A DNA stretch of 64,000 nucleotides, taken from NCBI RefSeq assembly GCF_013386115.1, contig NZ_JACAOR010000011.1, forward strand, positions 248,001-312,000, written 5' to 3'. This DNA comes from Pseudomonas gingeri (GTDB lineage: Bacteria; Pseudomonadota; Gammaproteobacteria; Pseudomonadales; Pseudomonadaceae). Under the pieces are notes generated by a model. It had not been told where the DNA came from and ran no database searches. It saw nothing but the letters and a program-made list of their open reading frames with translations. A program made the position numbers and the translations under genes. Below are positions 37,908 to 53,740 of the stretch, piece after piece; the stretch's first letter is position 1, and the number at the start of each line of letters is the position of its first letter.

Positions 37908-39233
37908 ATGTCGGTAAAAATCAACTTGCTCACACTGGCGGTATCGCTGGGCATGACCCAGTTCGCCATGGCGACCACCGTGACCGACCAGAGCGACGCC
38001 AAGGGCTTCGTCGACGACAGCAGTCTGAACCTGCACCTCAAGAACCAGTACTTCAACCGCGACCGGAAAAATGACAAGTCCGACCTCAGTGACTGGACCC
38101 AGGGGATCTTTGGCAACTACAGCTCCGGTTTCACCCAGGGTACGGTCGGTTTCGGCGTCGATGCCTTCGGCTACTGGGGCATCAAGCTCGACGGCGGACC
38201 GGGCACGGCCGGTACCGGCAACCTGCCGGTGGGACGCAACGGCTCTCCCGAAGACGATTACGCCAAGGCCGGTGGCGCGGTGAAGATCCGCGTCTCCAAG
38301 ACCGAGTTGCTCTACGGTGACATGCAACCCACCGCACCGGTGTTCGCTGCCGGTGGTACGCGGCTGATCCCGGAAACCGCCACCGGTTTCAACCTGCTCA
38401 GCAGCGAGATCAAGGACCTGGACCTGGAAGCCGGCCACTTCACCAGTGGTACCGGGGTGGTCACCACCAGCAGCGACCATGACCTGTTCGCCACCTATGC
38501 CAACGTCACCACCAGTGCCGTCAACTACCTGGGCGGCAAATACACCGTCAACGACAACCTCAACTTCACCCTCTACGGTTCCGAGTTCGAGGACGTCTGG
38601 CGCCAGTACTACACCAACGCCAACTACACCTTGCCGATTTCCCAGGCACAGTCGCTGAACTTCGATTTCAACCTCTACCGCACCCTGGATGAGGGCGAGG
38701 CCAAGGCCGGTCCGATCAACAACACCGCGTTCTCCTTCGCCACCGCGTACACCTTCCTGACCGCCCACACCGTGACCCTGGCTTTCCAGAAAGTCCATGG
38801 CAATACCCCGTTCGACTATGTCGGTTTCGGGACCAACGGTCCTGGCGACGGCGGCGACTCGATCCTGCTGGCCAACTCCGTGCAGTACTCGGACTTCAAC
38901 GGTCCTGGCGAGAAATCCTGGCAGGCGCGTTATGACCTGAAGATGGCGACCTACGGCGTTCCGGGCCTGAGCTTCATGACCCGCTACATCCACGGCGATG
39001 ATATCGACGGCAGCAAGATAGCCGCGGACAGCCCTTACCATGCCTACGGCTATGGCGCCAACGGCGAGCACCACGAGACCGATGTGGAAGCCAAGTACGT
39101 GGTGCAGAACGGCCCGGCCAAGGACCTGTCCCTGCGCCTGCGCGAGTCTATCCACCGGGGCAATGCCGACCAGGCCGAAGGCGACAACAACGAGCTGCGC
39201 CTGATCGCCGACTATCCTATCTCGATCTTCTGA
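37908..39233 (+). CDS. OprD-family outer membrane porin
   Basis: A 441-residue outer-membrane porin. The signal peptide is residues 1-22 ('LAVSLGMTQFAMA'), and the mature N-terminus contains the OprD hallmark 'GFVDDSSLNLHLKNQYFNRDRK' in outline. The barrel continues with repeated amphipathic strands and ends in '...ELRLIADYPISIF' with the C-terminal Phe recognised by the BAM machinery. The length is typical for OprD/OpdX porins specific to basic amino acids or small carboxylates. It lies downstream of the aminotransferase/cyclodeaminase operon in the same direction and could supply their amino acid substrate, but a 416-bp gap separates them. Confidence 0.92.
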   Translation: MSVKINLLTLAVSLGMTQFAMATTVTDQSDAKGFVDDSSLNLHLKNQYFNRDRKNDKSDLSDWTQGIFGNYSSGFTQGTVGFGVDAFGYWGIKLDGGPGTAGTGNLPVGRNGSPEDDYAKAGGAVKIRVSKTELLYGDMQPTAPVFAAGGTRLIPETATGFNLLSSEIKDLDLEAGHFTSGTGVVTTSSDHDLFATYANVTTSAVNYLGGKYTVNDNLNFTLYGSEFEDVWRQYYTNANYTLPISQAQSLNFDFNLYRTLDEGEAKAGPINNTAFSFATAYTFLTAHTVTLAFQKVHGNTPFDYVGFGTNGPGDGGDSILLANSVQYSDFNGPGEKSWQARYDLKMATYGVPGLSFMTRYIHGDDIDGSKIAADSPYHAYGYGANGEHHETDVEAKYVVQNGPAKDLSLRLRESIHRGNADQAEGDNNELRLIADYPISIF

Positions 39234-40057
39234 TCGGGAACGGGAAGAGGAGGGCGCGGGTTCTCTTCTTTCGCGTGTTCCGGCGTACAGGCCGCGGCGT
39301 CTGCCCGCGCCGCCTCGACGCGATTGCGGCCGGAGCGCTTGGCCTGGTACAACGCCGCATCCGCCAGCCCATAGGCACTGTCGAAACGGGTGCCGACGGG
39401 GCTGGCGCTGACGCCGAAACTCGCGGTGATCCGGCGGTTTACCGGCTGGCCGAAAACATGCGAGGCAATCGTGTCGCGCAGGGTTTCGGCCAGGGCCAGG
39501 CCTTCCTCGAGCGTGCCGGCGGGCATCAGCACGGTGAACTCCTCGCCGCCCACTCGCCCGATGAATCCGCCATTGCCGACGACACGCCGCAGGCAACCGA
39601 CGATGCCCTGGATTACCGCATCGCCGGCGGGGTGGCCGAACTCATCGTTGACCTGCTTGAAGTGGTCGATATCCAGCACCACCATCACCGCACCGGTTTT
39701 CTGCAGGGCCTGGACGGTCAGGTCAATGACCGCGCCACGATTCAGCACGCCGGTCAGCGCATCGTGGGTGGCGCGGTATTCGAGCTGATGGGCCAGGGTC
39801 TGCAACTGGGCATTGAGCGCGTTCATCTCGCGCTCGGCACGGTCGCTGCGGCGTATCAGGCGGCGTGTCTCGCGCATGAGCCGCTCGAAGTGCACGGTCA
39901 GGTCGGCGAGTGCCTGCTGGTACACCGGAGCCTCTGCTTCAGTCAGGGCCAGAATGGAACGGGCATGTTCAAGCGCGTCAGTTTCGCTTTTGAACAGGTC
40001 CGGTTCAGCGTCATCCTGTGCGCCAGCGAAAGTGACTGAAGCGGTCATGCTCATCAT
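39212..40057 (-). CDS. siaD: Diguanylate cyclase SiaD
   Basis: A 281-residue GGDEF enzyme. The N-terminal ~105 residues form a helical/coiled stretch ('MRETRRLIRRSDRAEREMNALNAQLQTLAHQLEYRATHD' in part) and the GGDEF domain follows with 'DALTGVLNRGAVID' and the active 'GGEEF' motif. The RxxD inhibitory site upstream of GGEEF is not visible. In P. aeruginosa SiaD is activated by dephosphorylated SiaC. It is the last gene of the siaABCD operon, 13 bp after siaC; an AGAAGG box directly precedes the first ATG, so initiation may occur at the ATG at 40048 instead. Its 3' end overlaps the end of the oprD gene by 22 bp. Confidence 0.9.
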   Translation of the reverse strand: MMSMTASVTFAGAQDDAEPDLFKSETDALEHARSILALTEAEAPVYQQALADLTVHFERLMRETRRLIRRSDRAEREMNALNAQLQTLAHQLEYRATHDALTGVLNRGAVIDLTVQALQKTGAVMVVLDIDHFKQVNDEFGHPAGDAVIQGIVGCLRRVVGNGGFIGRVGGEEFTVLMPAGTLEEGLALAETLRDTIASHVFGQPVNRRITASFGVSASPVGTRFDSAYGLADAALYQAKRSGRNRVEAARADAAACTPEHAKEENPRPPLPVPDQKIEIG

Positions 40058-40070
40058 CCTTCTCGGGGTG

Positions 40071-40460
40071 TCATTGGAGAGTCGTGGCGTGGTCGTTGAA
40101 GATGATGGCGGTAAAGTCGGCCTTCAGTTCTTCACCGAACTCGAAAATGGTTTCGTCTTCTTCGTCATGGTACCAGTTCACCTGCATCTCGTTGCCCGAT
40201 TGCGCGGCCTTGTCCAGCGCATCGAAGATGCTGAACAGCATCTTGGTGCTGGAACTGTTGAAATAGGCCAATGCGATATGGACGTTGATGGTGGTGTCCT
40301 CGCGGGAGGCGAGGTAGCCGCGCAGTTGCTGGAGCACGGGGGCATAGAAGGCGGCGGCGTTCTCCGGATAGGACTCGCCCTTTATCGTCAGCAGGTTCTG
40401 ATCGAAACGGAAGTCGACTTCCGGCGATGTGGCGGTTGCTTCGATGTAGAAATTATCCAT
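40071..40460 (-). CDS. siaC: SiaC regulatory phosphoprotein (DUF1987)
   Basis: A 129-residue small alpha/beta protein of the DUF1987/SiaC family. The conserved core 'LAYFNSSSTKMLFSIFDALDKAA' in outline includes Thr72, the likely counterpart of the Thr phosphorylated by SiaB in P. aeruginosa. Dephosphorylated by SiaA, SiaC binds SiaD and switches on c-di-GMP synthesis, driving aggregation and biofilm. It is located between siaB (19 bp upstream) and siaD (13 bp downstream), as in the known operon. Confidence 0.92.
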   Translation of the reverse strand: MDNFYIEATATSPEVDFRFDQNLLTIKGESYPENAAAFYAPVLQQLRGYLASREDTTINVHIALAYFNSSSTKMLFSIFDALDKAAQSGNEMQVNWYHDEEDETIFEFGEELKADFTAIIFNDHATTLQ

Positions 40461-40479
40461 GGTGATTGCGTCACTCTAC

Positions 40480-41049
40480 TCAAATGGTGGCTTTAAGGCA
40501 GAACAGCGTGGTTCCGGGCTCGTCCGCTCTCGGGTAGAAATCGAATTCCAGCGGGGCACAGGCATCGCGCGCCATGGTCAGGAAACCCAGGCCGGCGCCC
40601 TTGCTGTCGACGGGGGTTTCCGCGCGCAAGGTCACCTTGTAGGCCTGCTTGATCTCTTCCAGCGACATGTTGCGCAGGGGCTCCAGCTTTTCACGCAGGC
40701 GATCGACGTCGCTGGTGGCGATCGGGTTGGCGCAGAGCATCAGGTGGCGATCGCCGTCCGCACTGATGCATACCGCGCCCTGGCGCAGCGACGATTCGTC
40801 ACCGGGGTCGGTGGGCAACGAGTCGGAGGAGTAGTGAATGATGTTTTGCGACAGCTCGACGAAAGACGAAAACAGCTTGCGTCGCGTCGGCCCGTTGACC
40901 CCCGAGATCTCCAGCTGCAGCCGGACCACTTCGGCCATGGCGGTGATGATCGTGTGGGAGAAATACCCCATGTGATAGAAAATCACATTGCGCTGTTGGG
41001 CCAGGTCGAAGAAGTGGCAGTCGGAGTGGACAGCATTCGGATTAATCAT
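40480..41049 (-). CDS. siaB: SiaB-family threonine kinase
   Basis: A 189-residue protein with a GHKL-like ATP-binding fold: N-box 'ELSQNIIHYSSDSLP' (~residue 70) and G-box 'DSKGAGLGFLTMARD' (~145). SiaB phosphorylates SiaC and keeps it inactive. ATG 41049 overlaps the end of siaA (ATGATTAA), supporting coupling; fourteen more upstream residues are open but lie within siaA. The order siaA-siaB-siaC-siaD is the same as in P. aeruginosa. Confidence 0.88.
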   Translation of the reverse strand: MINPNAVHSDCHFFDLAQQRNVIFYHMGYFSHTIITAMAEVVRLQLEISGVNGPTRRKLFSSFVELSQNIIHYSSDSLPTDPGDESSLRQGAVCISADGDRHLMLCANPIATSDVDRLREKLEPLRNMSLEEIKQAYKVTLRAETPVDSKGAGLGFLTMARDACAPLEFDFYPRADEPGTTLFCLKATI

Positions 41050-42289
41050 GATCGTTTCCAAGACGCGCGCAGAAGAGGGTGAGATCGTCACGGCGGGTTT
41101 GCTCTCCCTGCCAATTGGCCAGCGTGCGTTGCAAGGCTTCGCAGATGACGGTCGCCGGCTGATTGCGATGTTCCAGTATCGTGTCGAAGGCCTTGCTCTT
41201 GCCGAAGGCGATGTTGCGCGGGCCGCCGATCTGGTCGGTCAGGCCGTCGGTCGCGATGAACACCAGGCTGGCCGGCGACAGTGCGATGCGGCTGACCGGC
41301 CACTGGTAGTCGATGGCGCTGTCCACGTAGCCGACACCCACGCGCTGCCCGGACAGGGTTTCCATCTGCCGGGCGTCGGGCGGCAAGACATGAAGGGCCA
41401 TGCGCGCACCGGCAAAGCTCAGGGTCTGGCTGGCGTTGTCGAACCAGAGAAACGCGGCATCCAGGCCATCGTCGGACTCGGGAATCTGCGCGCCGCTCTG
41501 CACCTGTCCCAGCAGTTCCTTGACGCTTTTGTTCACCGCCGCTAACAGCACGCCTGGATCCCGTGGACCGAAGCGCACCAGGGCCTGGGTCAGCGAGGAG
41601 GAGGCGATCAGGGTCATGAAGGCACCGGGAACGCCGTGGCCGGTACAGTCGGCAATTGCCCCGAACCAGCCGTCGGGATAGGCGCAGAAATGATAGAAGT
41701 CGCCACCGACCACATCCCGCGGTTCCCACAACAGGACGGCGTCTTCCAGGGTCGACTTCAAGGTATCGCGCGAGGCTCGCAGCATGGAGCGCTGGATAAC
41801 GCTCGCGTACTCGATGCTCTGCATGATCTGGCGGTTTTTCTCGGCCTGCATGGCGGCGACCACAGCCATCAGTTGCAGGCCGTTGCCCAGCCCGGCGAAC
41901 TGGCCGTTGCGGGTAATGATGAAACCGTCCGCGAGGGTCTTTTCGCCGGATTCCACGGTCTTGAAGGTCAATTCTTCAATGCTCATGCCGGCATCGACGA
42001 TCAACGGTTCCTTGTCCATGAAGGCAATGCAGCTTTTCTTGTCGTAGAGCTCGCGGTGAAACGGCTTGCTCATCATCGACAGGAAGATGTTGCGATTGAT
42101 CAGGCCGATGGGCCGCTCATCTTCCAGCACCGCCAGGCAGACCATCTCCTTCTGTGAGCTGAAAGTCTCCATGACCAGGGCATTGCTGCTGCTCCAGTCG
42201 ATCGCTGGCACTTCCGTGCACAGATCGCCGGCACAGCGGTGATCCTTGGGCCGTTGTGGACGCATGAAGGAGAAGGTTTCTGCGCGCAT
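41042..42289 (-). CDS. siaA: PP2C/SpoIIE-type phosphatase, SiaA-like with CBS pair
   Basis: A 415-residue protein. The C-terminal ~230 residues are a PP2C/SpoIIE phosphatase with metal-binding motifs 'VVGGDFYHF', 'IADCTGHGVPGAFM' and 'FIATDGLTDQIGG'. The N-terminal part (about residues 30-140) looks like a CBS pair ('VCLAVLEDERPIGLINRNIFLSMM', 'DGFIITRNGQFAGLGNGLQLM'), joined by a helical linker 'YASVIQRSMLRASRD'. P. aeruginosa SiaA is larger, with a periplasmic sensor, HAMP and transmembrane helices; none of these are present, so this SiaA should sense a cytosolic ligand. ATG 42289 was chosen over TTG 42307. It is the first gene of the operon. Confidence 0.85.
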   Translation of the reverse strand: MRAETFSFMRPQRPKDHRCAGDLCTEVPAIDWSSSNALVMETFSSQKEMVCLAVLEDERPIGLINRNIFLSMMSKPFHRELYDKKSCIAFMDKEPLIVDAGMSIEELTFKTVESGEKTLADGFIITRNGQFAGLGNGLQLMAVVAAMQAEKNRQIMQSIEYASVIQRSMLRASRDTLKSTLEDAVLLWEPRDVVGGDFYHFCAYPDGWFGAIADCTGHGVPGAFMTLIASSSLTQALVRFGPRDPGVLLAAVNKSVKELLGQVQSGAQIPESDDGLDAAFLWFDNASQTLSFAGARMALHVLPPDARQMETLSGQRVGVGYVDSAIDYQWPVSRIALSPASLVFIATDGLTDQIGGPRNIAFGKSKAFDTILEHRNQPATVICEALQRTLANWQGEQTRRDDLTLFCARLGNDHD

Positions 42290-42402
42290 GCTGGGGTCGC
42301 CGGGCAAAGTGAAGGCACAATGCTATCCCCGCAATATGAACCTTATGTTACGAATCTGCGCTGGGTCGCCGAGTGGCGACGGGGGTCGTATACCGCCCTT
42401 CG

Positions 42403-42437
42403 TGTATCAGAGTGTGTACGAACTCGGGGCTGATACA
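42403..42437. promoter_or_regulatory. Inverted repeat upstream of the RiPP locus
   Basis: TGTATCAG (42403-42410) and CTGATACA (42430-42437) are perfect reverse complements, 27 bp centre to centre, in the 275-bp gap between the divergent siaA and bufA-type genes. It sits about 130 bp before the first precursor gene and is the best operator candidate for the cluster; no cognate regulator is obvious. Confidence 0.42.
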
Positions 42438-42564
42438 TCCCGCGACCTCCTGCCCGGTTCCGGGACACAGAAGGGATACACGCTCGCGATTAACTTTGCT
42501 GGTCGAACAACGCAGCCCAAGACGCTGCTGATTCGCTCAATCCATTGTTGATCGGGAGATATCC

Positions 42565-42840
42565 ATGAAGAGCAGATACGCGGCCCTCGCAGCCACCCTC
42601 GCCATTTCACTCAGCGCGTTTGCCGTCGGTGCCCAGGCCGCCGATGGACAGACTCCCCAGGAAAAATGCTACGGCGTGTCCAAGGCCGGTCAGAACGATT
42701 GCGCCGCCGGCAAAGGCACTTCCTGCGCGGGCACCGCCACCGCCGACTACCAGGGCAATGCCTGGGTCCTGGTGGACAAGGGCACCTGCACCCAGATCAA
42801 GACGCCCAAGGGCTTCGGGTCCCTGACGGAGCAGCCATGA
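42565..42840 (+). CDS. bufA1: DUF2282 RiPP precursor, BufA1/GigP-type
   Basis: A 91-residue secreted precursor. The signal peptide is residues 1-26 ('[12 protein letters not shown]'). The mature part has four Cys (35, 46, 54, 75) in the family pattern '[22 protein letters not shown]...WVLVDKGTC'. Proteins of this family (bufferins; GigP in Cupriavidus) are exported metal-buffering peptides whose cysteines are oxidatively modified by a DUF692 enzyme such as the one encoded at 44575-45426. A GGGAG box lies 10 bp before ATG 42565, and the stop overlaps the start of the DoxX gene (ATGA). It is the first gene of the locus. Confidence 0.9.
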
Positions 42841-43274
42841 GCCGCGGCGCCGGGGCAGTGAGTGCCGGCCTCGGCCGGTTGTTGCCCGAGTCTCTGTTGC
42901 TGCTGGTAGCCCGTGTCGGGATCGCCTCGGTGTTCTTCCTGTCGGGACGCACCAAGGTCGAAGGCCTGTTGACGCTGAAACCTTCGACCTACGTGCTGTT
43001 CCGCTCGGAGTACGCGCTGCCGCTGATTCCGGCGGACCTGGCGGCCCACCTGGCGACCTATGCCGAGCACCTGTTCCCGGTCCTGCTGGTGCTGGGCTTG
43101 CTGACCCGGCCCGCGGCCCTGGCCTTGCTGGGCATGACCGCGGTGATCGAGGTGTTCGTGTACCCCGATGCATGGCCGACGCACCTGAGCTGGGCGGGTC
43201 TGCTGCTGCCGCTGATCGCCCATGGCGGCGGGAACTGGTCGCTGGATGCGCTGCTGCGCCGCCGACCGGCCTGA
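42837..43274 (+). CDS. DoxX-family membrane protein (GigT-like)
   Basis: A 145-residue inner-membrane protein with four hydrophobic helices. DoxX hallmarks are '[23 protein letters not shown]' in part (residues ~20-42) and '[22 protein letters not shown]' in part (~80-100). DoxX proteins accompany DUF2282/DUF692/DUF2063 genes in gig and bufferin operons. Their role is unknown; they may supply membrane redox equivalents. The ATG at 42837 overlaps the precursor stop by 4 bp. The longer open frame back to 42666 lies inside the precursor and was rejected. Confidence 0.88.
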
Positions 43275-43338
43275 CACCGCCCTCTCGGAACATGACTTTC
43301 AACCACAACATCAGGCCGAAGGCTTGAGGAGAAGCACC

Positions 43339-44103
43339 ATGCGTAAGTTACCCATCCTGGCCCTCAGTGCCCTGGCCATGAGCGCGCCACTGTTTGCCAG
43401 TGCGGCCGATCCGGTTCCGCCGACAGGTGCCAAGAACATCGTCATCGTGCACGGCTCGTTCGTCGACGGCTCGGGCTGGCGGGTGGTCCACGACATCCTG
43501 ATCCACAAGGGCTACCACGTCAGCGTCGTGCATCAGCCGGCCACCAGCCTGGACGCCGATGTGGCCGCTACCCGGGAAATCCTCGACCAGCAGGTCGGCC
43601 CGGTGGTGCTGGTCGGCCACAGTTCCGGCGGTGCGGTGATCGGTATCGCTGGCGAGCGGGACAAGGTCAAGGCACTGGTCTACGTCGCCGCGCTGCAACC
43701 GGAAGTCGGCGAGACCCTGGGCCAGTTGCTGAGTTCGATGCCGTCACCGAGCAACGACATCCATGGCACCCGCGACGGTCTGCTGTTCGTCGACCGCGCC
43801 AAGTTCGGCGAAGACTTCGCCGCCGACCAGACCACCAACCGCACCGACTTCCTGGCCGCTTCGCAGGTCCCGGCGACCACCGCCACTTTCGGCGCGCAGA
43901 ACTGGGCCGCCGCCTGGCACAAGAAGCCGAGCTACGGGATTGTCGCCACCGAAGACAAGGCCCTGAACCCGGACCTGCAGCGCTGGATGTACAAGCGTGC
44001 CGGCTCCAAGGTCACCGAGATCAAGGCCAGCCACACCCTGTACATCTCGCAGCCAGAAGCGGTGGCGAAAGTCATCGAAGAAGCCGCGCTGAACGCCAAG
44101 TAA
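43339..44103 (+). CDS. Exported alpha/beta hydrolase
   Basis: A 254-residue alpha/beta hydrolase with a signal peptide (residues 1-22, 'SAPLFASAADP'). The oxyanion segment is 'IVIVHGSFVDGSGW' (~residue 35) and the nucleophile elbow 'LVGHSSGGAVIGIAG' (Ser ~residue 95), with the likely catalytic His in 'IKASHTLYISQP' near the C-terminus. It resembles the salicylate-esterase-like exported hydrolases common in Pseudomonas. A GAGGAG box precedes ATG 43339. It lies between the two precursor genes of the RiPP locus, which suggests cotranscription; what it hydrolyses in the periplasm is unknown. Confidence 0.87.
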   Translation: MRKLPILALSALAMSAPLFASAADPVPPTGAKNIVIVHGSFVDGSGWRVVHDILIHKGYHVSVVHQPATSLDADVAATREILDQQVGPVVLVGHSSGGAVIGIAGERDKVKALVYVAALQPEVGETLGQLLSSMPSPSNDIHGTRDGLLFVDRAKFGEDFAADQTTNRTDFLAASQVPATTATFGAQNWAAAWHKKPSYGIVATEDKALNPDLQRWMYKRAGSKVTEIKASHTLYISQPEAVAKVIEEAALNAK

Positions 44104-44149
44104 ACCCCAACCCGACCTGTTGCAACCCTTATCTATCTGGAGAAACACC

Positions 44150-44416
44150 ATGGCTACCACCGCTTCCCGTTTGAGCATCGCTACCGCCGCCGCGCTGATC
44201 GCACTGTCTTGCGCTTCTTTCACCGTCTCCGCCAGCGCCGCCGACAAGGAGCAGCCGGGCCGCTGCTACGGCGTCAACAGCTGCAAGGGCGAAAGCCTCT
44301 GCGCCACCGCCAAGAATGACTGCAAGGGCCTGAACAGCTGCAAGGGGCAGGGCGTCGTGGTCAAGACCCCAAGCGAGTGCCTGAAGGCCGGCGGCACCCT
44401 GACCGAGCCCAAGTAA
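44150..44416 (+). CDS. bufA2: Second Cys-rich RiPP precursor, BufA2-type
   Basis: An 88-residue secreted precursor. The signal peptide is residues 1-31 ('FTVSASAADK'). The mature part has six Cys (39, 45, 51, 58, 64, 77), with the repeated motif CKG at 45-47, 58-60 and 64-66 and the family outline 'CYGVNSCKGESLCATAKNDC'. This BufA2 class differs from the four-Cys BufA1 at 42565 but shares the 'RCYGV' start. A TGGAG box lies ~8 bp before ATG 44150. It is the last precursor before the modifying enzyme gene, from which it is separated by a REP pair. Confidence 0.9.
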   Translation: MATTASRLSIATAAALIALSCASFTVSASAADKEQPGRCYGVNSCKGESLCATAKNDCKGLNSCKGQGVVVKTPSECLKAGGTLTEPK

Positions 44417-44430
44417 GCCTGAATCCATGA

Positions 44431-44524
44431 CCCCGTGGGAGCCGGCTTGCTGGCGAGGGTATCGACGCCTTGTGTCTGCCAGACCGTGTCGTCTGTATCG
44501 CCAGCAAGCCGGTTCCCACAGGGG
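44431..44524. repeat. REP doublet (REPIN) inside the RiPP operon
   Basis: CCGTGGGAGCCGGCTTGCTG (continuing GCGA) at 44434-44456 and its reverse complement TCGCCAGCAAGCCGGTTCCC (continuing ACAG) at 44498-44521 form an inverted pair. It separates the second precursor from the DUF692 gene and may reduce readthrough, keeping precursor mRNA above enzyme mRNA. The family differs slightly from that at 15849. Confidence 0.82.
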
Positions 44525-44574
44525 CGTGGTGTTCTTCGGTCGGTCTTCCCTTTCTCTCAAGCCGAGCACGCGCA

Positions 44575-45426
44575 ATGTCCATCTCCATTCCTGTTTTTCC
44601 GGGCTACGGCCTGGGTCTGCGCAAGGAACACTATCGGGATTTCCTGGAGACCGAGGTCCCTGTCGATTTCGTCGAGGTCATCTCCGAGAACTTCATGGTC
44701 GCGGGCGGCCAGCCCCGGCATATCCTGCGCCAGATCCGCGAGCGGCATCCGGTGGCGTTGCATGGCGTGTCGATGTCCATCGGCTCGGCGGACGGGCTCA
44801 ACCCCGACTACCTGCGCCGCCTCAAGGCGCTGGTCGACGAGATCGATCCGCTGTTCGTTTCCGATCACCTGAGCTGGTCGCGCATCGACCGGTTCAACTC
44901 CCATGACCTGTTGCCGGTGCCCTATACCGAAGAGGCCCTGGACAGCGTCTGCCGCAATATTTCCATGGCCCAGGATTTCCTTGGCCGGGCGATGCTGTTC
45001 GAGAACCCGTCGAGCTACCTGGCCTTCGACGGTGCGACGATGACCGAATGGGAGTTCATCGCGCGGATGTCGGAGCGCACCGGCTGCGGGCTGTTGCTCG
45101 ACGTCAACAATATCTTCGTCAGTGCGACCAACCACGGTTTCGACGCATTGGCCTTTCTCGACGGCCTGCCGGCTGATCGCGTGCGACAGATCCACCTGGC
45201 CGGACACAGCCAGGGGGCCGAGTTGCTGATCGACACCCACGACAGTCCGGTCTGCCAGGAAGTCTGGGCACTCTACGCCCTGGCGATTTCACGCTTCGGC
45301 CCGGTCGCCACCATGATCGAGCGGGACGACCGGATCCCGCCGCTGGCCGACCTGCTCAAGGAGCTGGACATGGCCCGTGCCCTCGGCTCGCTGGACACCC
45401 GCGGCTGCTCACGGAGGGCGTCATGA
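44575..45426 (+). CDS. bufB: DUF692 multinuclear non-heme iron oxidative enzyme (BufB/GigA)
   Basis: A 283-residue TIM-barrel enzyme of the DUF692/MNIO family, related to MbnB. Putative iron ligands are in 'EVISENFM' (~residue 37), 'ALHGVSMSIGS' (His ~61), 'LFVSDHLSWS' (~97), 'LLLDVNNIFVSATNHGF' (~180-196) and 'IHLAGHS' (~210). MNIOs use molecular oxygen to convert Cys in precursor peptides to oxazolone- or thiooxazole-type rings. ATG 44575 was chosen because it begins the domain; the frame is open to 44470. It overlaps bufC by 4 bp (ATGA). Its substrates should be the two precursors upstream. Confidence 0.93.
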   Translation: MSISIPVFPGYGLGLRKEHYRDFLETEVPVDFVEVISENFMVAGGQPRHILRQIRERHPVALHGVSMSIGSADGLNPDYLRRLKALVDEIDPLFVSDHLSWSRIDRFNSHDLLPVPYTEEALDSVCRNISMAQDFLGRAMLFENPSSYLAFDGATMTEWEFIARMSERTGCGLLLDVNNIFVSATNHGFDALAFLDGLPADRVRQIHLAGHSQGAELLIDTHDSPVCQEVWALYALAISRFGPVATMIERDDRIPPLADLLKELDMARALGSLDTRGCSRRAS

Positions 45427-46169
45427 ACCTGGCCGAGTTGCAACGCGAGTTCCATCACTGGCTGGTCAGCGCGGACGAGAGTGTCGCGCGACGCCTCGGC
45501 AGCAACGTGGCCGCGGGCTTGGCGGTGTACCAGAACAACTATCGGGCGCAATTGGTGGGCTGCCTGGAACAGGCATTTACGCAATTGCGCCGCTGGCTCG
45601 GCGACGAGGCGTTCCTCGCCGCAGCGGTCAGTCATATCGACCGGCAACCGCCCCACGCCTGGACCCTGGATGCCTATCCCGAGGGCTTTCACGCCAGCCT
45701 GGTGGAGCTGTTCCCGAACAACCCGGATGTCCAGGAACTGGCCTGGATCGAGGCGGCGCTCAATGACGCGTTTGTCGCCGCGGATGCCGAGGCCCTGTCA
45801 CTGGAGGCCCTGGCGACGATCGACTGGGATTCGGCGCGGCTGCGCCTGGCGCCATCCTTGCGCAGCCATGCCCTGACCACCAACGCCGAGGCGATCTGGT
45901 CCGCGTTGTGTGACGAGGTGACACCACCGGAAAGCGAGATGCTCGCCGAACCGGGCGGGGTGATCGTCTGGCGTCGGCAATTCACCTCGCGGCTGCGTCC
46001 GCTGGAGCAACTGGAATACGAAGCCCTGCTGCACCTGCAGGCCAACGGCAGTTTCGCCGCCCTGTGCGAGTGGCTGGTCGAGCGCCTCGGTGAAACCGAG
46101 GGCGTTGCCCGGGCCGGTGCGCTGCTGGCCGGCTGGCTCGCCAGCGAACTGATCGTCGATATCGCCTGA
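45423..46169 (+). CDS. bufC: DUF2063 partner protein (BufC/GigB)
   Basis: A 248-residue protein. The N-terminal DUF2063 domain (residues ~3-95) begins 'LAELQREFHHWLVSADES' and contains 'GLAVYQNNYRAQLVGCLEQAFTQLRRWLGD' in part; the C-terminal half is a MbnC-like region. DUF2063 proteins bind the precursor leader or core and present it to the DUF692 enzyme, forming the MNIO-partner complex. The ATG at 45423 overlaps the bufB stop, which supports complex formation. A Tat-exported hydrolase gene begins 31 bp after its stop. Confidence 0.92.
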   Translation: MNLAELQREFHHWLVSADESVARRLGSNVAAGLAVYQNNYRAQLVGCLEQAFTQLRRWLGDEAFLAAAVSHIDRQPPHAWTLDAYPEGFHASLVELFPNNPDVQELAWIEAALNDAFVAADAEALSLEALATIDWDSARLRLAPSLRSHALTTNAEAIWSALCDEVTPPESEMLAEPGGVIVWRRQFTSRLRPLEQLEYEALLHLQANGSFAALCEWLVERLGETEGVARAGALLAGWLASELIVDIA

Positions 46170-46200
46170 TTCCTGTCCCCCTGATCCGAGGAACCCCATC

Positions 46201-47259
46201 ATGTCCGAGTACCCGTTCAATCGCCGTCGTTTCCTGCTGTCCGCCGCTGCCGGAGCGGCGGCCATCGGCCTGGCGGATATGACCCCGGCACTGGCGTCGG
46301 CGAGCCAGGGCACGGCGCCTTACCAGCATCGGTCGAGCAAGCCGCTGACGCGTTTTCCGATCCGCCAGGTCAGTACCGACCTGCTGGATATCGGCTACCA
46401 CGAGACCGGCCCGGAGAACGGTCGGCCGGTGATCCTGCTGCATGGTTATCCCTACGACATCCACAGTTATGTCGAGGTCGCGCCACTGCTCGCGGCCCAG
46501 GGGTTTCGAGTGGTCGTGCCGCACCTGCGCGGGCACGGCAGCACCCGTTTCCTCGACAGTGCCACGCCACGTTCGGGCCAGCAGGCGGCGCTCGGCCAGG
46601 ATGTGCTGGACCTGATGAATGCGCTGCATATCCCCGAGGCGGTGCTCGCCGGCTACGACTGGGGCGGTCGTGCGGCCTGTGTCGCGGCGGCCTTGCGTCC
46701 GAGTCGCGTGGTCGGCCTGGTCTCGGTCAACAGCTACCTGATCCAGGACATCGCCAAGGCTGCCAGCCCGCTGCCGGCGCATGTCGAATGGGGACTCTGG
46801 TACCAGCATTACTTCCAGACCGAGCGCGGTCGCGCGGGGCTCGAGGCGAACCGTCGCGATATCGCGCGGATCCTCTGGCGCAACAACTCGCCGACCTGGC
46901 ACTTCGATGACCGCACCTTCGACCGCGCGGCCGAGGCCTTTGATAACCCCGACTATGTCGACGTGGTCATCCATTCCTATCGCCATCGCATGGGGCTGGC
47001 GGCGGGTTATCCGGATTACGCCGAGGCCGAGCAGAAGCTCGCGCTGTTGCCGGCGATCAGCGTGCCGGCCATCACCCTCGACGGCGTCGCCGATGGCGTG
47101 ATCGCGGCCACCGACGGCAAGGCCTCGGCGCCGCGTTTCAGCGGTCCGCGCAGTCATCGGCAGGTTCCCGGCGTGGGTCACAACCTGCCCCAGGAAGCCC
47201 CCAAGGTGTTTGCCGACGCCGTGACCGAACTGGTGCACGGCGGCAAATGGCGAACCTGA
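46201..47259 (+). CDS. Tat-exported alpha/beta hydrolase, epoxide-hydrolase type
   Basis: A 352-residue hydrolase. The N-terminus has a twin-arginine signal ('FNRRRFLLSAAAGAAAIG'), so it should be exported folded. Catalytic features are 'ILLHGYPYDIHSY' (HGxP oxyanion motif, ~residue 80) and the nucleophile elbow 'VLAGYDWGGRAACV' with Asp ~residue 153, as in epoxide hydrolases and haloalkane dehalogenases, and a C-terminal His in 'VPGVGHNLPQEAP'. It follows bufC by 31 bp on the same strand. The substrate is unknown. Its proximity to a Cys-peptide-modifying system and a second exported hydrolase suggests that this locus handles a small organic compound as well as metal. Confidence 0.86.
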   Translation: MSEYPFNRRRFLLSAAAGAAAIGLADMTPALASASQGTAPYQHRSSKPLTRFPIRQVSTDLLDIGYHETGPENGRPVILLHGYPYDIHSYVEVAPLLAAQGFRVVVPHLRGHGSTRFLDSATPRSGQQAALGQDVLDLMNALHIPEAVLAGYDWGGRAACVAAALRPSRVVGLVSVNSYLIQDIAKAASPLPAHVEWGLWYQHYFQTERGRAGLEANRRDIARILWRNNSPTWHFDDRTFDRAAEAFDNPDYVDVVIHSYRHRMGLAAGYPDYAEAEQKLALLPAISVPAITLDGVADGVIAATDGKASAPRFSGPRSHRQVPGVGHNLPQEAPKVFADAVTELVHGGKWRT

Positions 47260-47333
47260 TCGGCTGCCCCGGCGCAGCCTGTTGTCCCACCCCTGGTGAT
47301 CCCTCCGTATCCGTGGAGGCAAGGAGATAGAAC

Positions 47334-48668
47334 ATGAACAACACCCTCTCTGAAGCAAGCGCCGCACCGACGCCGGTAGACCGGTTACGCGTCGACAGTT
47401 ACACCCAGGGCCTGATCGGCCCGAGCCAGGCCATGCTCGGCCCGCTGGCCGACGGCGGCACCCTGATCACCGGCACGCCGCCGGGCTGCTGGGGGCCGAT
47501 GATCACGCCGGCCTTCCAGGGCGGCCATGAAGTGACGCAGCCGGTGGCGATTGCCGGCGCCGAAGTGGGCGATGCCGTCGCCCTGAAGATCCGCCGCATG
47601 CGAGTCACTTCCCTGGCGACGTCCTCGGGCGTGATGAGCTTTGTCGAAGGGCGTTATCACGGCGATCCGTTTGTCGCCAAGTTCTGCGCGGCCTGCGGTA
47701 CCGAACATCCGGCCAGCCATGTCGAGGGCATCGGCGAGGACGCGATCCGTTGCAACAACTGCGGTGCGGAAGTCAGTGCGTTTCGTTTCAGCCATGGCTA
47801 CGTGATCGTGCTGGATGCCGAGAACCAGGTCAGTCTCACCGTCAACCAGGCGGTCGCCGACCGGCTGGCGGGCAATGCCGCGCAGATGTCGGCGTTGCCG
47901 GACATGGCGGCACAGCATTCGATCCTGTCACTGGCCCGTGCCGACATTCCGGGACTGGCGGCACACATGCGGCCGTTTCTCGGCAACATCGGCACCACAC
48001 CGTCGCGGGACCTGCCGGACTCGCACAACTGCGCGGATTTCGGCCAGTACCTCGTGGGCGCGCCCCATCGTTATGGCATGACCCATGAGCAACTGCACGA
48101 AGCCAAGACCGACGGCCATATGGACACCAACTCGGTCCGCGAAGGCTGCGTGCTGATCTGCCCGGTGAAAGTGCCGGGGGCCGGCGTGTACATGGGGGAT
48201 ATGCATGCGCAGCAGGGCAATGGCGAAATCGCCGGGCATGCCACCGACGTTTCCGGCGAAACCGAACTGACGGTAGAGGTGATCAAGGGGCTGACGATCG
48301 ATGGCCCGATCCTGTTGCAGAACCTCGATGACCTGCCGCCCATGGCCCGGCCGATGAACGCCGAACAGCGCCAGAAGGTGCGTGAGCTGGGGGCCCTGTG
48401 GGGCCAGCACGAGGTCGAGGAGAGCGGCCCGATCACCTTTATCGGCAGTGGCGTGAACCTCAATGTGGCGACGGAGAACGGTTTGCGTCGTGCCGCTGCG
48501 GCCACCGGCCTGCCCTACGATGAAGTGCTCAATCGTGCCACGCTCAACGGTTCCATCGACATCAGCCGCTTGCCCGGCACCGTACGGGTGACCTTCCTGT
48601 GTCCGTTGCCGGTGCTGGACCGGATGGGCATCGGCCATCTGGTGCGGGAAAAGTATCAGTTGGCCTAG
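47334..48668 (+). CDS. Acetamidase/formamidase-family protein with zinc-ribbon insert
   Basis: A 444-residue protein of the acetamidase/formamidase (FmdA_AmdA) family, with 'PGCWGPMITPAFQGGHEVTQP' in part and 'GCVLICPVKVPGAGVYMGDMHAQQGNGEIAGHA' in part (His and Asp metal-site residues, ~270-300). Cys118, 121, 140 and 143 form a CxxC...CxxC zinc-ribbon-like insert that I do not associate with the standard enzymes. No signal peptide is seen, so it should be cytosolic. It follows the Tat hydrolase by 74 bp and precedes a strong terminator, making it the last gene of the locus. The substrate (formamide, acetamide or another amide) is unknown. Confidence 0.85.
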   Translation: MNNTLSEASAAPTPVDRLRVDSYTQGLIGPSQAMLGPLADGGTLITGTPPGCWGPMITPAFQGGHEVTQPVAIAGAEVGDAVALKIRRMRVTSLATSSGVMSFVEGRYHGDPFVAKFCAACGTEHPASHVEGIGEDAIRCNNCGAEVSAFRFSHGYVIVLDAENQVSLTVNQAVADRLAGNAAQMSALPDMAAQHSILSLARADIPGLAAHMRPFLGNIGTTPSRDLPDSHNCADFGQYLVGAPHRYGMTHEQLHEAKTDGHMDTNSVREGCVLICPVKVPGAGVYMGDMHAQQGNGEIAGHATDVSGETELTVEVIKGLTIDGPILLQNLDDLPPMARPMNAEQRQKVRELGALWGQHEVEESGPITFIGSGVNLNVATENGLRRAAAATGLPYDEVLNRATLNGSIDISRLPGTVRVTFLCPLPVLDRMGIGHLVREKYQLA

Positions 48669-48720
48669 ATCGCCATCACGCAGTGCTCCCTGCAAGTCTG
48701 GATAGACGTCTGTATCCCCG

Positions 48721-48759
48721 GCCCCGATCAGGCTCTTCGATCGGGGCTGTTTTTTTTCG
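48721..48759 (+). terminator. Intrinsic terminator after the RiPP/hydrolase locus
   Basis: GCCCCGATC (48721-48729) pairs with GATCGGGGC (48739-48747) with a 9-base loop, followed by TG and a run of eight T. It lies 52 bp after the acetamidase-family gene and ends the plus-strand locus; the convergent AraC gene stops at 48765. Confidence 0.93.
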
Positions 48760-48764
48760 TCTGC

Positions 48765-49715
48765 TCAATGCCGCTGACCCACAGGCAGGGACGGGTAGGC
48801 GCCGTTGTGCCGGAGCAGAGTCATGGCCGCTCCACGCCGATAGTCGCTGGGCGTCTGGTTCATCTCGAAGCGAAAGTGCCGGTTGAAGTTGGACAGGTTG
48901 CCGTAACCGACTTCGAAGCAGATATCGGCCACCGACATCTCGCTCTGCAGCAACAGCCGACAGGCACGTTGCACCCGCAACTTGCGCATCAGGTCGATGA
49001 AACCGTGCCCGGTGATGCGCTTGAAGAAGCGGGAAAAGCCCGGCTCGCTCATCCCCAGGCGCTGGGCGATGACCGACAGCCGCAGGTCGCCGGTCAGTTC
49101 CGTCAGCAGGTAGTCGAAGGCCTTGTGAATCCGTTCGGAGCTGCGTGCATCCAGGCTCGGGGCATAACAGACGCTGGCCAGCAGATGCACCTCCGGCTCC
49201 GGAGCCTGCACCAGGGTATTGATCAGTTGCAGGAACAGGATCAGGCGCTCCAGGCCCTCGGCGCGGCCAATCTGCTCCATCAGCCGGGCGGCCTGCAGCG
49301 CGGTCGCGCCAGTGAACTCCAGGCCGCGCCGGGCGCGTTCGAACAGGCTCTGCAGGCTCCCCAGTTCCGGTAGCGTGGCACGCAGGGCGAGCAGGGCGGC
49401 GCCGTCGAATTGCAGGACGACATCGCGGCCCACCAGGTACTCGCCGGGCGTCAGGTCGCCGATCCAGTCATGGGGCAGGTCGGGACCGATCAGCGCGACA
49501 TGGCCGGGACCGAACGCACCGATGTAGTCGCCCGCCACCAGCTTGCCGCTGCCATGGCGGATCAGGTGCAGCTCGAATTCGGGATGATGGTTCCAGCGGG
49601 CGAGCGGCGAGGGATAGTCGTGTTCATGCCAGCGAAAGCCGTGGTCGGGTTGCGGCAGGATCACTTCCAGCTCGGCCGGTCGTTGCTCGAACAGGGCTGT
49701 TCGACTGTCAGCCAT
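48765..49715 (-). CDS. mtlR: AraC-family regulator, MtlR-like
   Basis: A 316-residue regulator with an N-terminal cupin domain ('HGFRWHEHDYPSPLARWNHHPEFELHLIRHGSGKLVAGDY' in part, residues ~24-70) and a C-terminal AraC DNA-binding domain ('VIAQRLGMSEPGFSRFFKRITGHGF', 'VADICFEVGYGNLSNFNRHFRFEMNQTPSDYRR' in outline). The N-terminal sequence strongly resembles MtlR, the activator of the mannitol/arabitol/sorbitol operon in P. fluorescens. It is divergent from an MtlE-like binding protein gene, as expected. The gap contains a long inverted repeat that may be its binding site. Confidence 0.82.
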   Translation of the reverse strand: MADSRTALFEQRPAELEVILPQPDHGFRWHEHDYPSPLARWNHHPEFELHLIRHGSGKLVAGDYIGAFGPGHVALIGPDLPHDWIGDLTPGEYLVGRDVVLQFDGAALLALRATLPELGSLQSLFERARRGLEFTGATALQAARLMEQIGRAEGLERLILFLQLINTLVQAPEPEVHLLASVCYAPSLDARSSERIHKAFDYLLTELTGDLRLSVIAQRLGMSEPGFSRFFKRITGHGFIDLMRKLRVQRACRLLLQSEMSVADICFEVGYGNLSNFNRHFRFEMNQTPSDYRRGAAMTLLRHNGAYPSLPVGQRH

Positions 49716-52937: not shown

Positions 52938-53558
52938 TCAGGGCAGCGTCGCCTTGAAGCTGGGCAGGGCCTGCACCTGTTGCCACCACTGGGCAAAACC
53001 CTCGACGTCGAATACCTGCGCGGCATCCGGGGTCAGGGCGATATAGGTGCAGAACGGCACCAGGTAGAAGTCGGCGAGCGAAACATTCGGCCCGGCGATA
53101 AAGCGGTCTTGCCCCTTGATCTTCATCAGTTCGCGCAGGACCCGGCGCGAGTTCTCTATGCCGTTGCGCCGGGATTCTTCGTTCTGCCCGCCGATAAAGT
53201 CGGGGAACAGGTGATAACCGGCCACCGACACCAGCGCACCGTAGCCATAGGAGTCGTAGATACCGATGGCCATGTTGGCACGGGCGCGGTCCCAGGCGGT
53301 TTCCGGCATCAGTGACGGTCCCGGCAGCACCTCGTTCAGATAGGCGGTGATGGCTCCGCTCTCGATCACCCGGAAACCGTCATGGTCGATCACCGGTACC
53401 TTGCCGAAGGGATGACGCAACAGGTGTTCGGGAGAGTGGGGTTCGCCCTGGAGGACATCGACCGGAACCTGTTCATAGTCCGCGCCTTTCTCGGCGAGAA
53501 GCATTCTGACGGTGCGCACGTAGGTGCTGCCGCTGTAGCCGTAAAGGGTGATGCTCAT
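52938..53558 (-). CDS. Glutathione S-transferase family protein
   Basis: A 206-residue GST. The N-terminal thioredoxin-like domain starts 'SITLYGYSGSTYVRTVRMLLAEKG' in part and has the cis-Pro/Glu-Ser glutathione-binding signature 'KVPVIDHDGFRVIESGAITAYL' in part (~residues 52-73). The C-terminal helical domain includes 'FIAGPNVSLADFYLVPF' (~150-166) with the N-capping Asp. It resembles phi/theta-like bacterial GSTs. It is convergent with lepB and lies in its own transcription unit. The conjugated substrate is unknown. Confidence 0.9.
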   Translation of the reverse strand: MSITLYGYSGSTYVRTVRMLLAEKGADYEQVPVDVLQGEPHSPEHLLRHPFGKVPVIDHDGFRVIESGAITAYLNEVLPGPSLMPETAWDRARANMAIGIYDSYGYGALVSVAGYHLFPDFIGGQNEESRRNGIENSRRVLRELMKIKGQDRFIAGPNVSLADFYLVPFCTYIALTPDAAQVFDVEGFAQWWQQVQALPSFKATLP

Positions 53559-53740
53559 GATGATGACCTCCTGGGTGAACCCTGCACTGTGATGATCGGG
53601 CCACCCGGTGCGGGTGGCTTGGGACCGGCACAGTTCATCGCGTGGATGTATCCACGGTGTGTCCGCTGGCGGCGACAGCTTGAGTCAGTGTGTCCGGCGC
53701 AAGGCTGTACACACTGTGATACGTGGGGGGAGGTCGACGC

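What the first reader, a model, noticed from the sequence alone, without database searches (positions are those of the whole stretch)
42565..48759. Expanded bufferin/gig-type RiPP locus with two precursors, two exported hydrolases and an amidase-family protein
Seen: on one strand, DUF2282 precursor, DoxX, exported alpha/beta hydrolase, second Cys-rich precursor, DUF692 (MNIO), DUF2063, Tat alpha/beta hydrolase, acetamidase/formamidase family protein, terminator. Known: DUF2282-DUF692-DUF2063-DoxX sets are bufferin (copper) and gigPABT (gold) loci in which the MNIO oxidises precursor cysteines. Inference: the extra two hydrolases and the Zn-ribbon amidase make this an elaborated version that may modify, release or detoxify a small molecule in addition to binding metal. 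I know of no description of this eight-gene combination.
Basis: partly seen in the sequence, partly recalled or inferred. Interest (0 to 1): 0.88.

Follow-up and report, generated by a model that had tools for sequence, protein, structure and literature searches.

The report
Stress-regulated double bufferin operon with amidase
This is an eight-gene bacterial operon that makes two metal-binding peptides together with three extra hydrolase-type proteins; the set recurs in distantly related bacteria and sits under a shared DNA switch that also precedes peroxide- and toxin-defence genes, which points to a wider stress response than copper buffering alone.

Summary
The eight genes are real, on one strand, where stated (42565-48668). 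Precursors, MNIO and DUF2063 form a bona fide bufferin set. The extra genes are not chance neighbours: all eight recur in Pseudomonas gingeri, Caballeronia and two Cupriavidus genomes, seven in a third Cupriavidus and a Paraburkholderia. The first six are kept in 10 of 10 uncut Pseudomonas relatives. The amidase-family gene (AMID) also heads an AMID-HvfB-type-DUF2063 cluster in 27 other Pseudomonas loci.

Outside the finding lies its probable control: a ~95-bp operator before this operon, AMID, hvfB, an HvfA-type precursor, ohr, GST and a PtrA-like gene. It has 69 sites in 39 of 149 genomes (reversed-pattern control 0). All 39 carry one OmpR-family regulator (80 of 149 overall), and 33 of 69 sites lie within 10 kb of it (0.35 expected).

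Against RiPP tailoring or release: AMID occurs without MNIO and MNIO without AMID, and both hydrolases lose catalytic residues in some relatives. Best reading: a co-regulated envelope-stress and metal/thiol defence operon. Seven of the eight gene types were already listed as 'Pep4' (eLife 2021). Regulator, signal and all chemistry here are inferred.

The parts
42403..42495 (+). Operator/promoter of the operon: TGTATC direct repeat (42403-42419), then ACACAGAAGGGATACA (42465-42480) and GATACA-N7-GATTAACT (42475-42495); TTAACT is a candidate -10
   Evidence: Patterns found with expectation 0.05 and 0.01 per window; first repeat lies 61-63 bp before ACAC in 90 of 92 distinct elements although it was not part of the search pattern
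42565..42840 (+). P1: DUF2282 (Buf1) precursor, 91 aa, Sec-like leader, 4 Cys
   Evidence: Pfam DUF2282; the 4 Cys present in 17 of 17 aligned sequences
42837..43274 (+). DoxX-family membrane protein; start overlaps the P1 stop
   Evidence: Pfam DoxX; HvfX model 45.8 bits, under its cut-off of 80
43339..44103 (+). ABH1: alpha/beta hydrolase with Sec-like leader; nucleophile motif GHSSG and His intact here
   Evidence: (hydroxynitrile lyase / esterase-like, E about 1e-7)
44150..44416 (+). P2: BufA2-family (Buf2) precursor, 88 aa, 6 Cys in the mature part
   Evidence: NCBIfam BufA2 above cut-off; the 6 Cys present in 17 of 17
44425..44529 (.). Inverted repeat with 32-nt arms (88% complementary, 41-nt gap) between P2 and the MNIO gene; looks like a Pseudomonas REP pair (recalled label)
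44575..45426 (+). MNIO (BufB) maturase, 283 aa
   Evidence: NCBIfam MNIO_BufB 385.6 bits over cut-off 310; best PDB match 3bww, E 9e-47
45423..46169 (+). DUF2063 partner protein (BufC/HvfC-like); start overlaps the MNIO stop
   Evidence: Pfam DUF2063; HvfC model 23.6 bits, under its cut-off of 142
46201..47259 (+). ABH2: alpha/beta hydrolase of epoxide-hydrolase type with Tat-like leader; Asp nucleophile motif GYDWGG intact here
   Evidence: (5bov 'putative epoxide hydrolase', E 2e-91)
47334..48668 (+). AMID: acetamidase/formamidase-family protein, 444 aa, two CxxC pairs (possible zinc ribbon), no leader seen
   Evidence: Pfam FmdA_AmdA
48731..48748 (+). Terminator-like hairpin followed by a T run
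   Evidence: weak by count
53632..53724 (-). Second copy of the same operator in the window, reading into the GST gene
52938..53558 (-). Glutathione S-transferase-family gene, inferred member of the same regulon
   Evidence: Pfam GST_N; a similar GST gene follows an HvfA-type precursor and DoxX behind the same operator in L239

Best explanation
A single stress-induced operon of the bufferin kind. Two Cys-rich precursors of different families (Buf1 and Buf2) are probably modified by the MNIO with its DUF2063 partner (by analogy Cys to 5-thiooxazole), exported by Sec, and bind Cu(I) or a similar soft metal in the periplasm; DoxX supports this in the membrane. The exported hydrolases and the cytosolic amidase-family protein are not part of RiPP maturation but co-regulated damage-control proteins against the electrophiles and peroxides that arise under the same stress. 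The operon is switched on through a ~95-bp operator (10-11-bp-spaced TGTATC repeats upstream of a weak -10) by an OmpR-family two-component regulator, which also controls GST, Ohr, HvfA/HvfB-type metallophore genes, a PtrA-like small protein and others. Shown here: gene content, cross-order linkage, the operator and its regulon, and its tie to one regulator gene. Inferred: the regulator's binding, the signal (copper, hypochlorite or organic hydroperoxide), the peptide modification and every enzyme activity.
For: Linkage: all eight genes in L089, L101, L125, L128 and seven of eight in L106 (no ABH1) and L129 (no ABH2), among the 80 best AMID loci; six-gene core in 10 of 10 uncut relatives, the eleventh being cut by a contig end. 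AMID tree: 34 of 48 rows of one clade (support 100/98) are MNIO-adjacent, 0 of 33 outside it. Operator: own genome, TGTATC-repeat pattern 5 matches, control 0; the four exact GATACA-N7-SNTKAACT matches lie at the same four places. Genus: 69 sites in 39 of 149 genomes, reversed-pattern control 0. 33 of 33 inspected sites precede a short list of gene types. Regulator: orthologue in 39 of 39 site genomes against 80 of 149 overall; 33 of 69 sites within 10 kb, 0.35 expected; it is present in 16 of 16 genomes with AMID (one of them broken) and 12 of 12 with this MNIO. In the own genome the order is operator, MBL-fold gene, this regulator, histidine kinase. The same operator with the same 62-bp spacing (1 mismatch) precedes the P. 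heleia operon. Oxidant link: Ohr in the regulon; an OhrR-like MarR gene divergent from the operon in L128; DUF692 clusters induced by hypochlorite in P. aeruginosa (PMC9023270, passage) and by HOCl in H. influenzae (PMC7907618, passages).
Against: No expression, binding or peptide data. No operator (up to 2 mismatches) in 5 of 6 Burkholderiales loci scanned, so the control is not universal for the eight-gene set. In the own genome none of the three sites that fit the full pattern is near the regulator; the site before the MBL-regulator pair lacks the ACAC part. The first trial pattern gave 11 hits against 8 in the control, and the GATACA pattern with one mismatch 16 against 9; only the exact or longer patterns are clean. 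Co-occurrence with the regulator is confounded by phylogeny; 41 genomes have the regulator and no exact site. Hydrolases that lose catalytic residues in relatives fit 'damage-control enzyme' poorly there. AMID in its outgroup sits in aromatic-degradation-like operons, which suggests catabolism.
Confidence: 0.62

Rival explanations
1. The amidase-family protein and the hydrolases act on the RiPP itself: they trim, hydrolyse or recycle the thiooxazole-bearing peptides, or release metal from them.
For: AMID is adjacent to two different MNIO types, BufB and HvfB-type; ABH1 and ABH2 are periplasmic by their leaders, where the mature peptides should be.
Against: 20 of 45 genomes with AMID away from MNIO have no MNIO at all. 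HvfB-type MNIO without AMID follows the operator in L212, L218, L221 and L228, and those four genomes have no AMID orthologue. The nearest relatives with the whole core (L063, L064) have neither ABH2 nor AMID. AMID has no leader while mature bufferins are periplasmic.
Confidence: 0.15
2. AMID is itself a protein substrate of the MNIO, through its conserved CxxC pairs (it occupies the precursor position in AMID-MNIO-DUF2063 clusters).
For: Gene order AMID-MNIO-DUF2063 in 27 loci without a separate Sec-type precursor gene between them; PMC12452194 proposes that MNIOs may modify proteins (abstract).
Against: The four Cys are invariant in 48 of 48 and 33 of 33 AMIDs of the two clades, including lineages without MNIO. 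An HvfA-type precursor gene behind the same operator exists elsewhere in several of these genomes (G045, G048 and G136).
Confidence: 0.05
3. An ordinary bufferin locus for copper, with accessory genes kept only because the cassette moves as a block; the extras have no joint function.
For: The eight-gene set shared by P. gingeri and Burkholderiaceae suggests transfer as a unit; PMC12452194 says additional conserved genes are rare in bufferin BGCs (section 14).
Against: The shared operator also lies before AMID and GST when they stand apart from bufferin genes, which block transfer does not predict.
Confidence: 0.15

Closest known systems
Bufferin BGCs (Buf1 = DUF2282, Buf2 = BUF_6/12Cys; Antoine et al. 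2025, PMC12452194)
   Same: Precursor, MNIO and DUF2063 genes in the order A-B-C, plus DoxX; Cys patterns of Buf1 (4) and Buf2 (6); tandem precursors are reported there.
   Different: Both precursor families in one operon, split by DoxX and ABH1; three extra hydrolase-type genes; no sigma factor or NrsF gene beside it; an OmpR-type regulon instead (inferred). The main text has no occurrence of amidase, acetamidase or formamidase.
Pseudomonas BGC 'Pep4' (PMC8719888, eLife 2021; passages seen)
   Same: DUF2282, DoxX, hydrolase, short peptide, DUF692, DUF2063, hydrolase: the same first seven gene types in the same order.
   Different: No amidase-family gene listed, no function or regulon assigned.
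HvfABC/HvfX - captophorins/oxazolins (H. influenzae, N. gonorrhoeae; PMC13097082, passages seen)
   Same: The MNIO beside AMID in other Pseudomonas is of the HvfB family (421 bits, cut-off 360), and the co-regulated DoxX is HvfX (150, cut-off 80).
   Different: The window's own MNIO is BufB, not HvfB (265.7 under 360); the hvfA- and hvfB-type genes in these Pseudomonas are in separate operons behind the same operator.
gig operon (C. metallidurans, L. pneumophila; PMC5413113, search listing only)
   Same: DUF2282, DUF692, DUF2063 and DoxX genes, metal-responsive.
   Different: No second precursor, hydrolases or amidase recalled there (recalled, not read).
Formamidase/acetamidase FmdA_AmdA (PF03069; PDB 3tkk, 5ubu)
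   Same: Family membership; 3tkk aligns over GDxHAxxGxGE, E 1.2e-12.
   Different: Scores 32.7 against the formamidase equivalog cut-off of 500: substrate unknown.

Membership tests
Bufferin BGC | BufB-type MNIO above curated cut-off | tested here: met
   385.6 bits against 310
Bufferin BGC | Precursor of Buf1 and/or Buf2 with 4 or 6 Cys | tested here: met
   DUF2282 87.9/22.4; BufA2 89.1/60; Cys conserved in 17 of 17
Bufferin BGC | DUF2063 partner directly after the MNIO gene | tested here: met
   Pfam 69.4/27.2, overlapping start; HvfC equivalog not reached (23.6/142)
Bufferin BGC | DoxX gene in the cluster | tested here: met
   62.9/23.6
Bufferin BGC | Cys modification and copper binding of the product | not testable with these tools
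   Needs mass spectrometry
HvfABC (captophorin) system | HvfB-type MNIO and EGKCG precursor | tested here: not met
   Window MNIO 265.7 under 360; no EGKCG motif in either precursor. Met only by the AMID-linked MNIO of other Pseudomonas
Formamidase (FmdA) equivalog | Score over the NCBIfam cut-off | tested here: not met
   32.7 against 500; PF03069 superfamily membership met (140.2/27)
Epoxide hydrolase-type alpha/beta hydrolase (ABH2) | Asp nucleophile and C-terminal His | tested here: met
   GYDWGG and VGHNLPQ in the window; absent or incomplete in 7 mini forms and L106 of 12 aligned. Activity not tested
OmpR/PhoB-type regulon | Direct repeats at 10-11 bp near the promoter and a linked OmpR-family regulator | tested here: met
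   binding itself not tested
OmpR (orthologue of E. coli OmpR) | NCBIfam OmpR cut-off | tested here: not met
   242.3 against 331

The most novel reading that the evidence does not exclude
Pseudomonas has an undescribed two-component regulon, marked by a ~95-bp TGTATC-repeat operator, that unites three kinds of MNIO metallophore (Buf1, Buf2, HvfA type) with peroxide and electrophile defence (Ohr, GST, alpha/beta hydrolases), and AMID is a portable dedicated partner of these thiooxazole systems that moves between BufB and HvfB clusters. Bufferins would then be one arm of an oxidant/thiol-stress response rather than stand-alone copper buffers.
Probability: 0.45. Interest if true: 0.78.

Novelty: new variant of a known kind. 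Interest (0 to 1): 0.6.

Why it matters
MNIO-modified peptides are a large new RiPP class whose physiological trigger is unsettled (copper, gold or hypochlorite, according to the study). A defined operator and a candidate regulator in tractable pseudomonads would make the trigger directly testable, and would tie the metallophores to peroxide and electrophile defence. AMID and the degenerating hydrolases are new candidate partners to test.

Tried and rejected
Chance neighbours: rejected. AMID as MNIO substrate: rejected as the main reading. AraC gene downstream (48768-49715, -) as part of the unit: its orthologue appears beside the operon only in P. gingeri L089 among the loci mapped, so it was left out. 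The kinase-regulator pair beside DUF2063 in L074 as the regulator: found in only 3 loci (L074, L075, L098), dropped. Sigma-70 scan: 0 promoters, 1.2 expected in shuffles, no help. First operator pattern with one mismatch: 11 against 8 in the control, not usable alone. Literature: 'acetamidase' with 'DUF692' 0 papers; 'DUF2282' with 'hydroperoxide' and 'Ohr' 0 papers; 'TGTATC' with 'Pseudomonas' and 'response regulator' 6 papers, none on this by title; the library is open-access only. Structure prediction and fold search were not used.
Full report
Observation. The eight genes lie on the + strand between 42565 and 48668 in the order given, with overlapping or short gaps except 158 bases between P2 and the MNIO gene, which hold a 105-base inverted-repeat element. 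Family assignments are by curated models. The MNIO passes the BufB model and P2 the BufA2 model; P1 is a clear DUF2282 protein. AMID belongs to PF03069 but is far under the formamidase equivalog (32.7 against 500). ABH2 is closest to a solved 'putative epoxide hydrolase' (5bov, E 2e-91); ABH1 is hydroxynitrile-lyase/esterase-like (E about 1e-7).

Own genome. It is held as G000 (7.35 Mb, 29 contigs) and has three MNIO genes. The other two have their own Cys-rich precursors and DUF2063 genes beside them (read from the ORFs of L002 and L003). The closest named relative by AMID is P. gingeri D8001 (97%); the tool may leave out nearer records, so the species is inferred.

Linkage inside the genus. 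In 149 Pseudomonas genomes an MNIO of any kind occurs in 121, but the orthologue of this one (79% identity or more) in 12 including the own genome. Of the 11 relatives, 10 keep P1-DoxX-ABH1-P2-MNIO-DUF2063 and one is cut by a contig end. AMID orthologues (83% or more) occur in 15 genomes including the own, plus a broken copy in G086; the other hits of the 49 matching genomes are short and weak. In none of the 14 other genomes is AMID beside this MNIO, but in 10 of them, and in G086, it is directly followed by another MNIO about 40% identical. Taken alone this would have made the window's arrangement look like a local fusion.

Linkage across orders. Mapping all genes shows all eight in P. gingeri L089, Caballeronia glathei L101, Cupriavidus yeoncheonensis L125 and Cupriavidus sp. 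YR651 L128; seven in C. pampae L106 (no ABH1) and Paraburkholderia heleia L129 (no ABH2); and remnants (ABH2-like, AMID, DoxX-like) in Massilia polaris L142. In 27 further loci, all Pseudomonas, AMID is followed by the second MNIO and its DUF2063 gene. That MNIO is of the HvfB family (421 bits over 360, tested on the L074 copy).

AMID tree (81 rows). One clade of 48 rows (100/98) holds all MNIO-adjacent AMIDs: 27 HvfB type, 7 eight-gene type, 14 neither. The 33 rows outside have no adjacent MNIO by my tblastn map; 30 sit beside a Rieske-type operon. The eight-gene label needs 5 changes, so the association was gained or lost repeatedly; 4 of 500 shuffles were as low for that label. Of the AMID loci without an adjacent MNIO, 45 of 47 genomes were held: 25 have an MNIO somewhere, 20 none. 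Within the 48-row clade this is 12 of 13, outside it 13 of 32. AMID is thus often, not always, tied to MNIO, and is not an MNIO substrate by its Cys, which are invariant in both clades.

Degenerating hydrolases. Seven relatives (L066-L072) have after DUF2063 a 149-178-aa version of ABH2 that keeps the leader and N-terminal half but lacks the His-bearing C-terminal part; five of the seven also lost the Asp nucleophile. L063, L064, L065 and L073 have none. L106 lacks the His region. ABH1 has lost its Ser in L125 (GHGYG) and L129 (GDGYG) of 16 aligned. In the window both triads look intact. This argues that catalysis is not the only reason these proteins are kept, or that it is being lost where the need is gone.

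Operator and regulon. The upstream regions share an element first seen by eye: TGTATC direct repeat, an inverted GATACA, then ACACAG-N4-GATACA-N7-SNTKAACT. In the own genome the repeat pattern has 5 matches (control 0) and the GATACA pattern 4 exact matches, at the same four places: this operon; the GST gene at 52938-53558; a YbdD-like gene plus cytochrome P460 next to SCO/PCuAC-like copper chaperone genes (the latter named by eye); and an MBL-fold/DUF2790 pair. A fifth place, with one mismatch in each pattern, precedes an AEGGSDR-repeat small protein. With one mismatch allowed the patterns are not specific (16 against 9, and 11 against 8 for the first trial pattern). The combined exact pattern in 149 genomes gives 69 sites in 39 genomes and 0 control hits. 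The 33 sites in the 30 loci fetched precede: the buf operon 6, AMID 4, HvfB-type MNIO after AMID 3, the same MNIO without AMID 4, AEGGSDR-type protein 8, DoxX with Ohr (Ohr gene visible in one of the three) 3, Ohr 2, EGKCG precursor with DoxX 2, P460 operon 1 (several of the AEGGSDR genes were read by eye from the complementary frame). Among 92 distinct elements in all loci, 90 have TGTAYH 61-63 bp before ACAC, which was not part of the search (many elements come from close relatives). The P. heleia operon has the element at the same 62-bp spacing with one mismatch; five other Burkholderiales loci, among them L101, L125 and L128, have none within 2 mismatches. L128 instead has a divergent OhrR-like MarR gene (122 bits, under the cut-off of 200).

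Regulator. An OmpR-family regulator gene lies 70-1,500 bp from the AEGGSDR-side site in several genomes, and its 88%-identical orthologue in the own genome follows the MBL gene behind site four, with a histidine kinase after it. Orthologues occur in 80 of 149 genomes (E <= 1e-105) and in 39 of 39 site genomes (hypergeometric 9e-14, ignoring phylogeny); 33 of 69 sites in 21 genomes are within 10 kb of one, 0.35 expected. In L085, L086, L077 and L088 the kinase-regulator pair stands beside, or within a few genes of, AMID-MNIO-DUF2063. It is not OmpR itself (242 under 331).

Signal. Literature passages: hypochlorite induces a DUF692 RiPP set in P. aeruginosa (PMC9023270) and the DoxX-DUF2063 operon in H. 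influenzae (PMC7907618); copper, gold and oxidants induce thiooxazole pathways (PMC13097082). With Ohr and GST in the regulon I favour oxidant/thiol stress with copper as a partner, but no test was possible.

Verdict. Real, conserved, a new variant of bufferin loci; seven of its eight gene types were listed before as Pep4 (PMC8719888). The newest parts are the AMID-MNIO association and the regulon. I found no description of either in the searches named under Tried and rejected, which cover open-access papers only.

Noticed in passing
L135-L155 and others (30 loci): AMID homologues of Acinetobacter, Zoogloea, Xanthobacter and others sit beside a Rieske oxygenase gene, often with StyA-like monooxygenase, flavin reductase and SDR genes (names by eye): an aromatic-degradation-like operon.
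   Followed up: partly
L066-L072, after DUF2063: A conserved shortened alpha/beta hydrolase (149-178 aa) without its catalytic C-terminal part; probably a pseudoenzyme.
   Followed up: partly
L125 and L129, ABH1: The nucleophile Ser of ABH1 is replaced (GHGYG, GDGYG) while the gene stays intact.
   Followed up: partly
L102 and L109: AMID stands among exported epoxide-hydrolase-like genes without MNIO next to it (names by eye).
   Followed up: no
L194 1138-1419 (-), L208 1592-1969: Small exported proteins with AEGGSDR repeats behind the operator; the L208 one just reaches the PtrA N-terminal domain model (31.7 against 31).
   Followed up: partly
L239 6214-8462: Operator, EGKCG precursor, DoxX, GST and a dienelactone-hydrolase-like gene in a row, away from its HvfB-type MNIO.
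   Followed up: partly
window 44425-44529: Inverted repeat between P2 and the MNIO gene, perhaps setting precursor-to-enzyme expression ratio.
   Followed up: no
window 39212-42307 (-): Divergent GGDEF and siaABC-like genes, also upstream of the operon in L063, L064 and L089 but not in the other mapped relatives.
   Followed up: no
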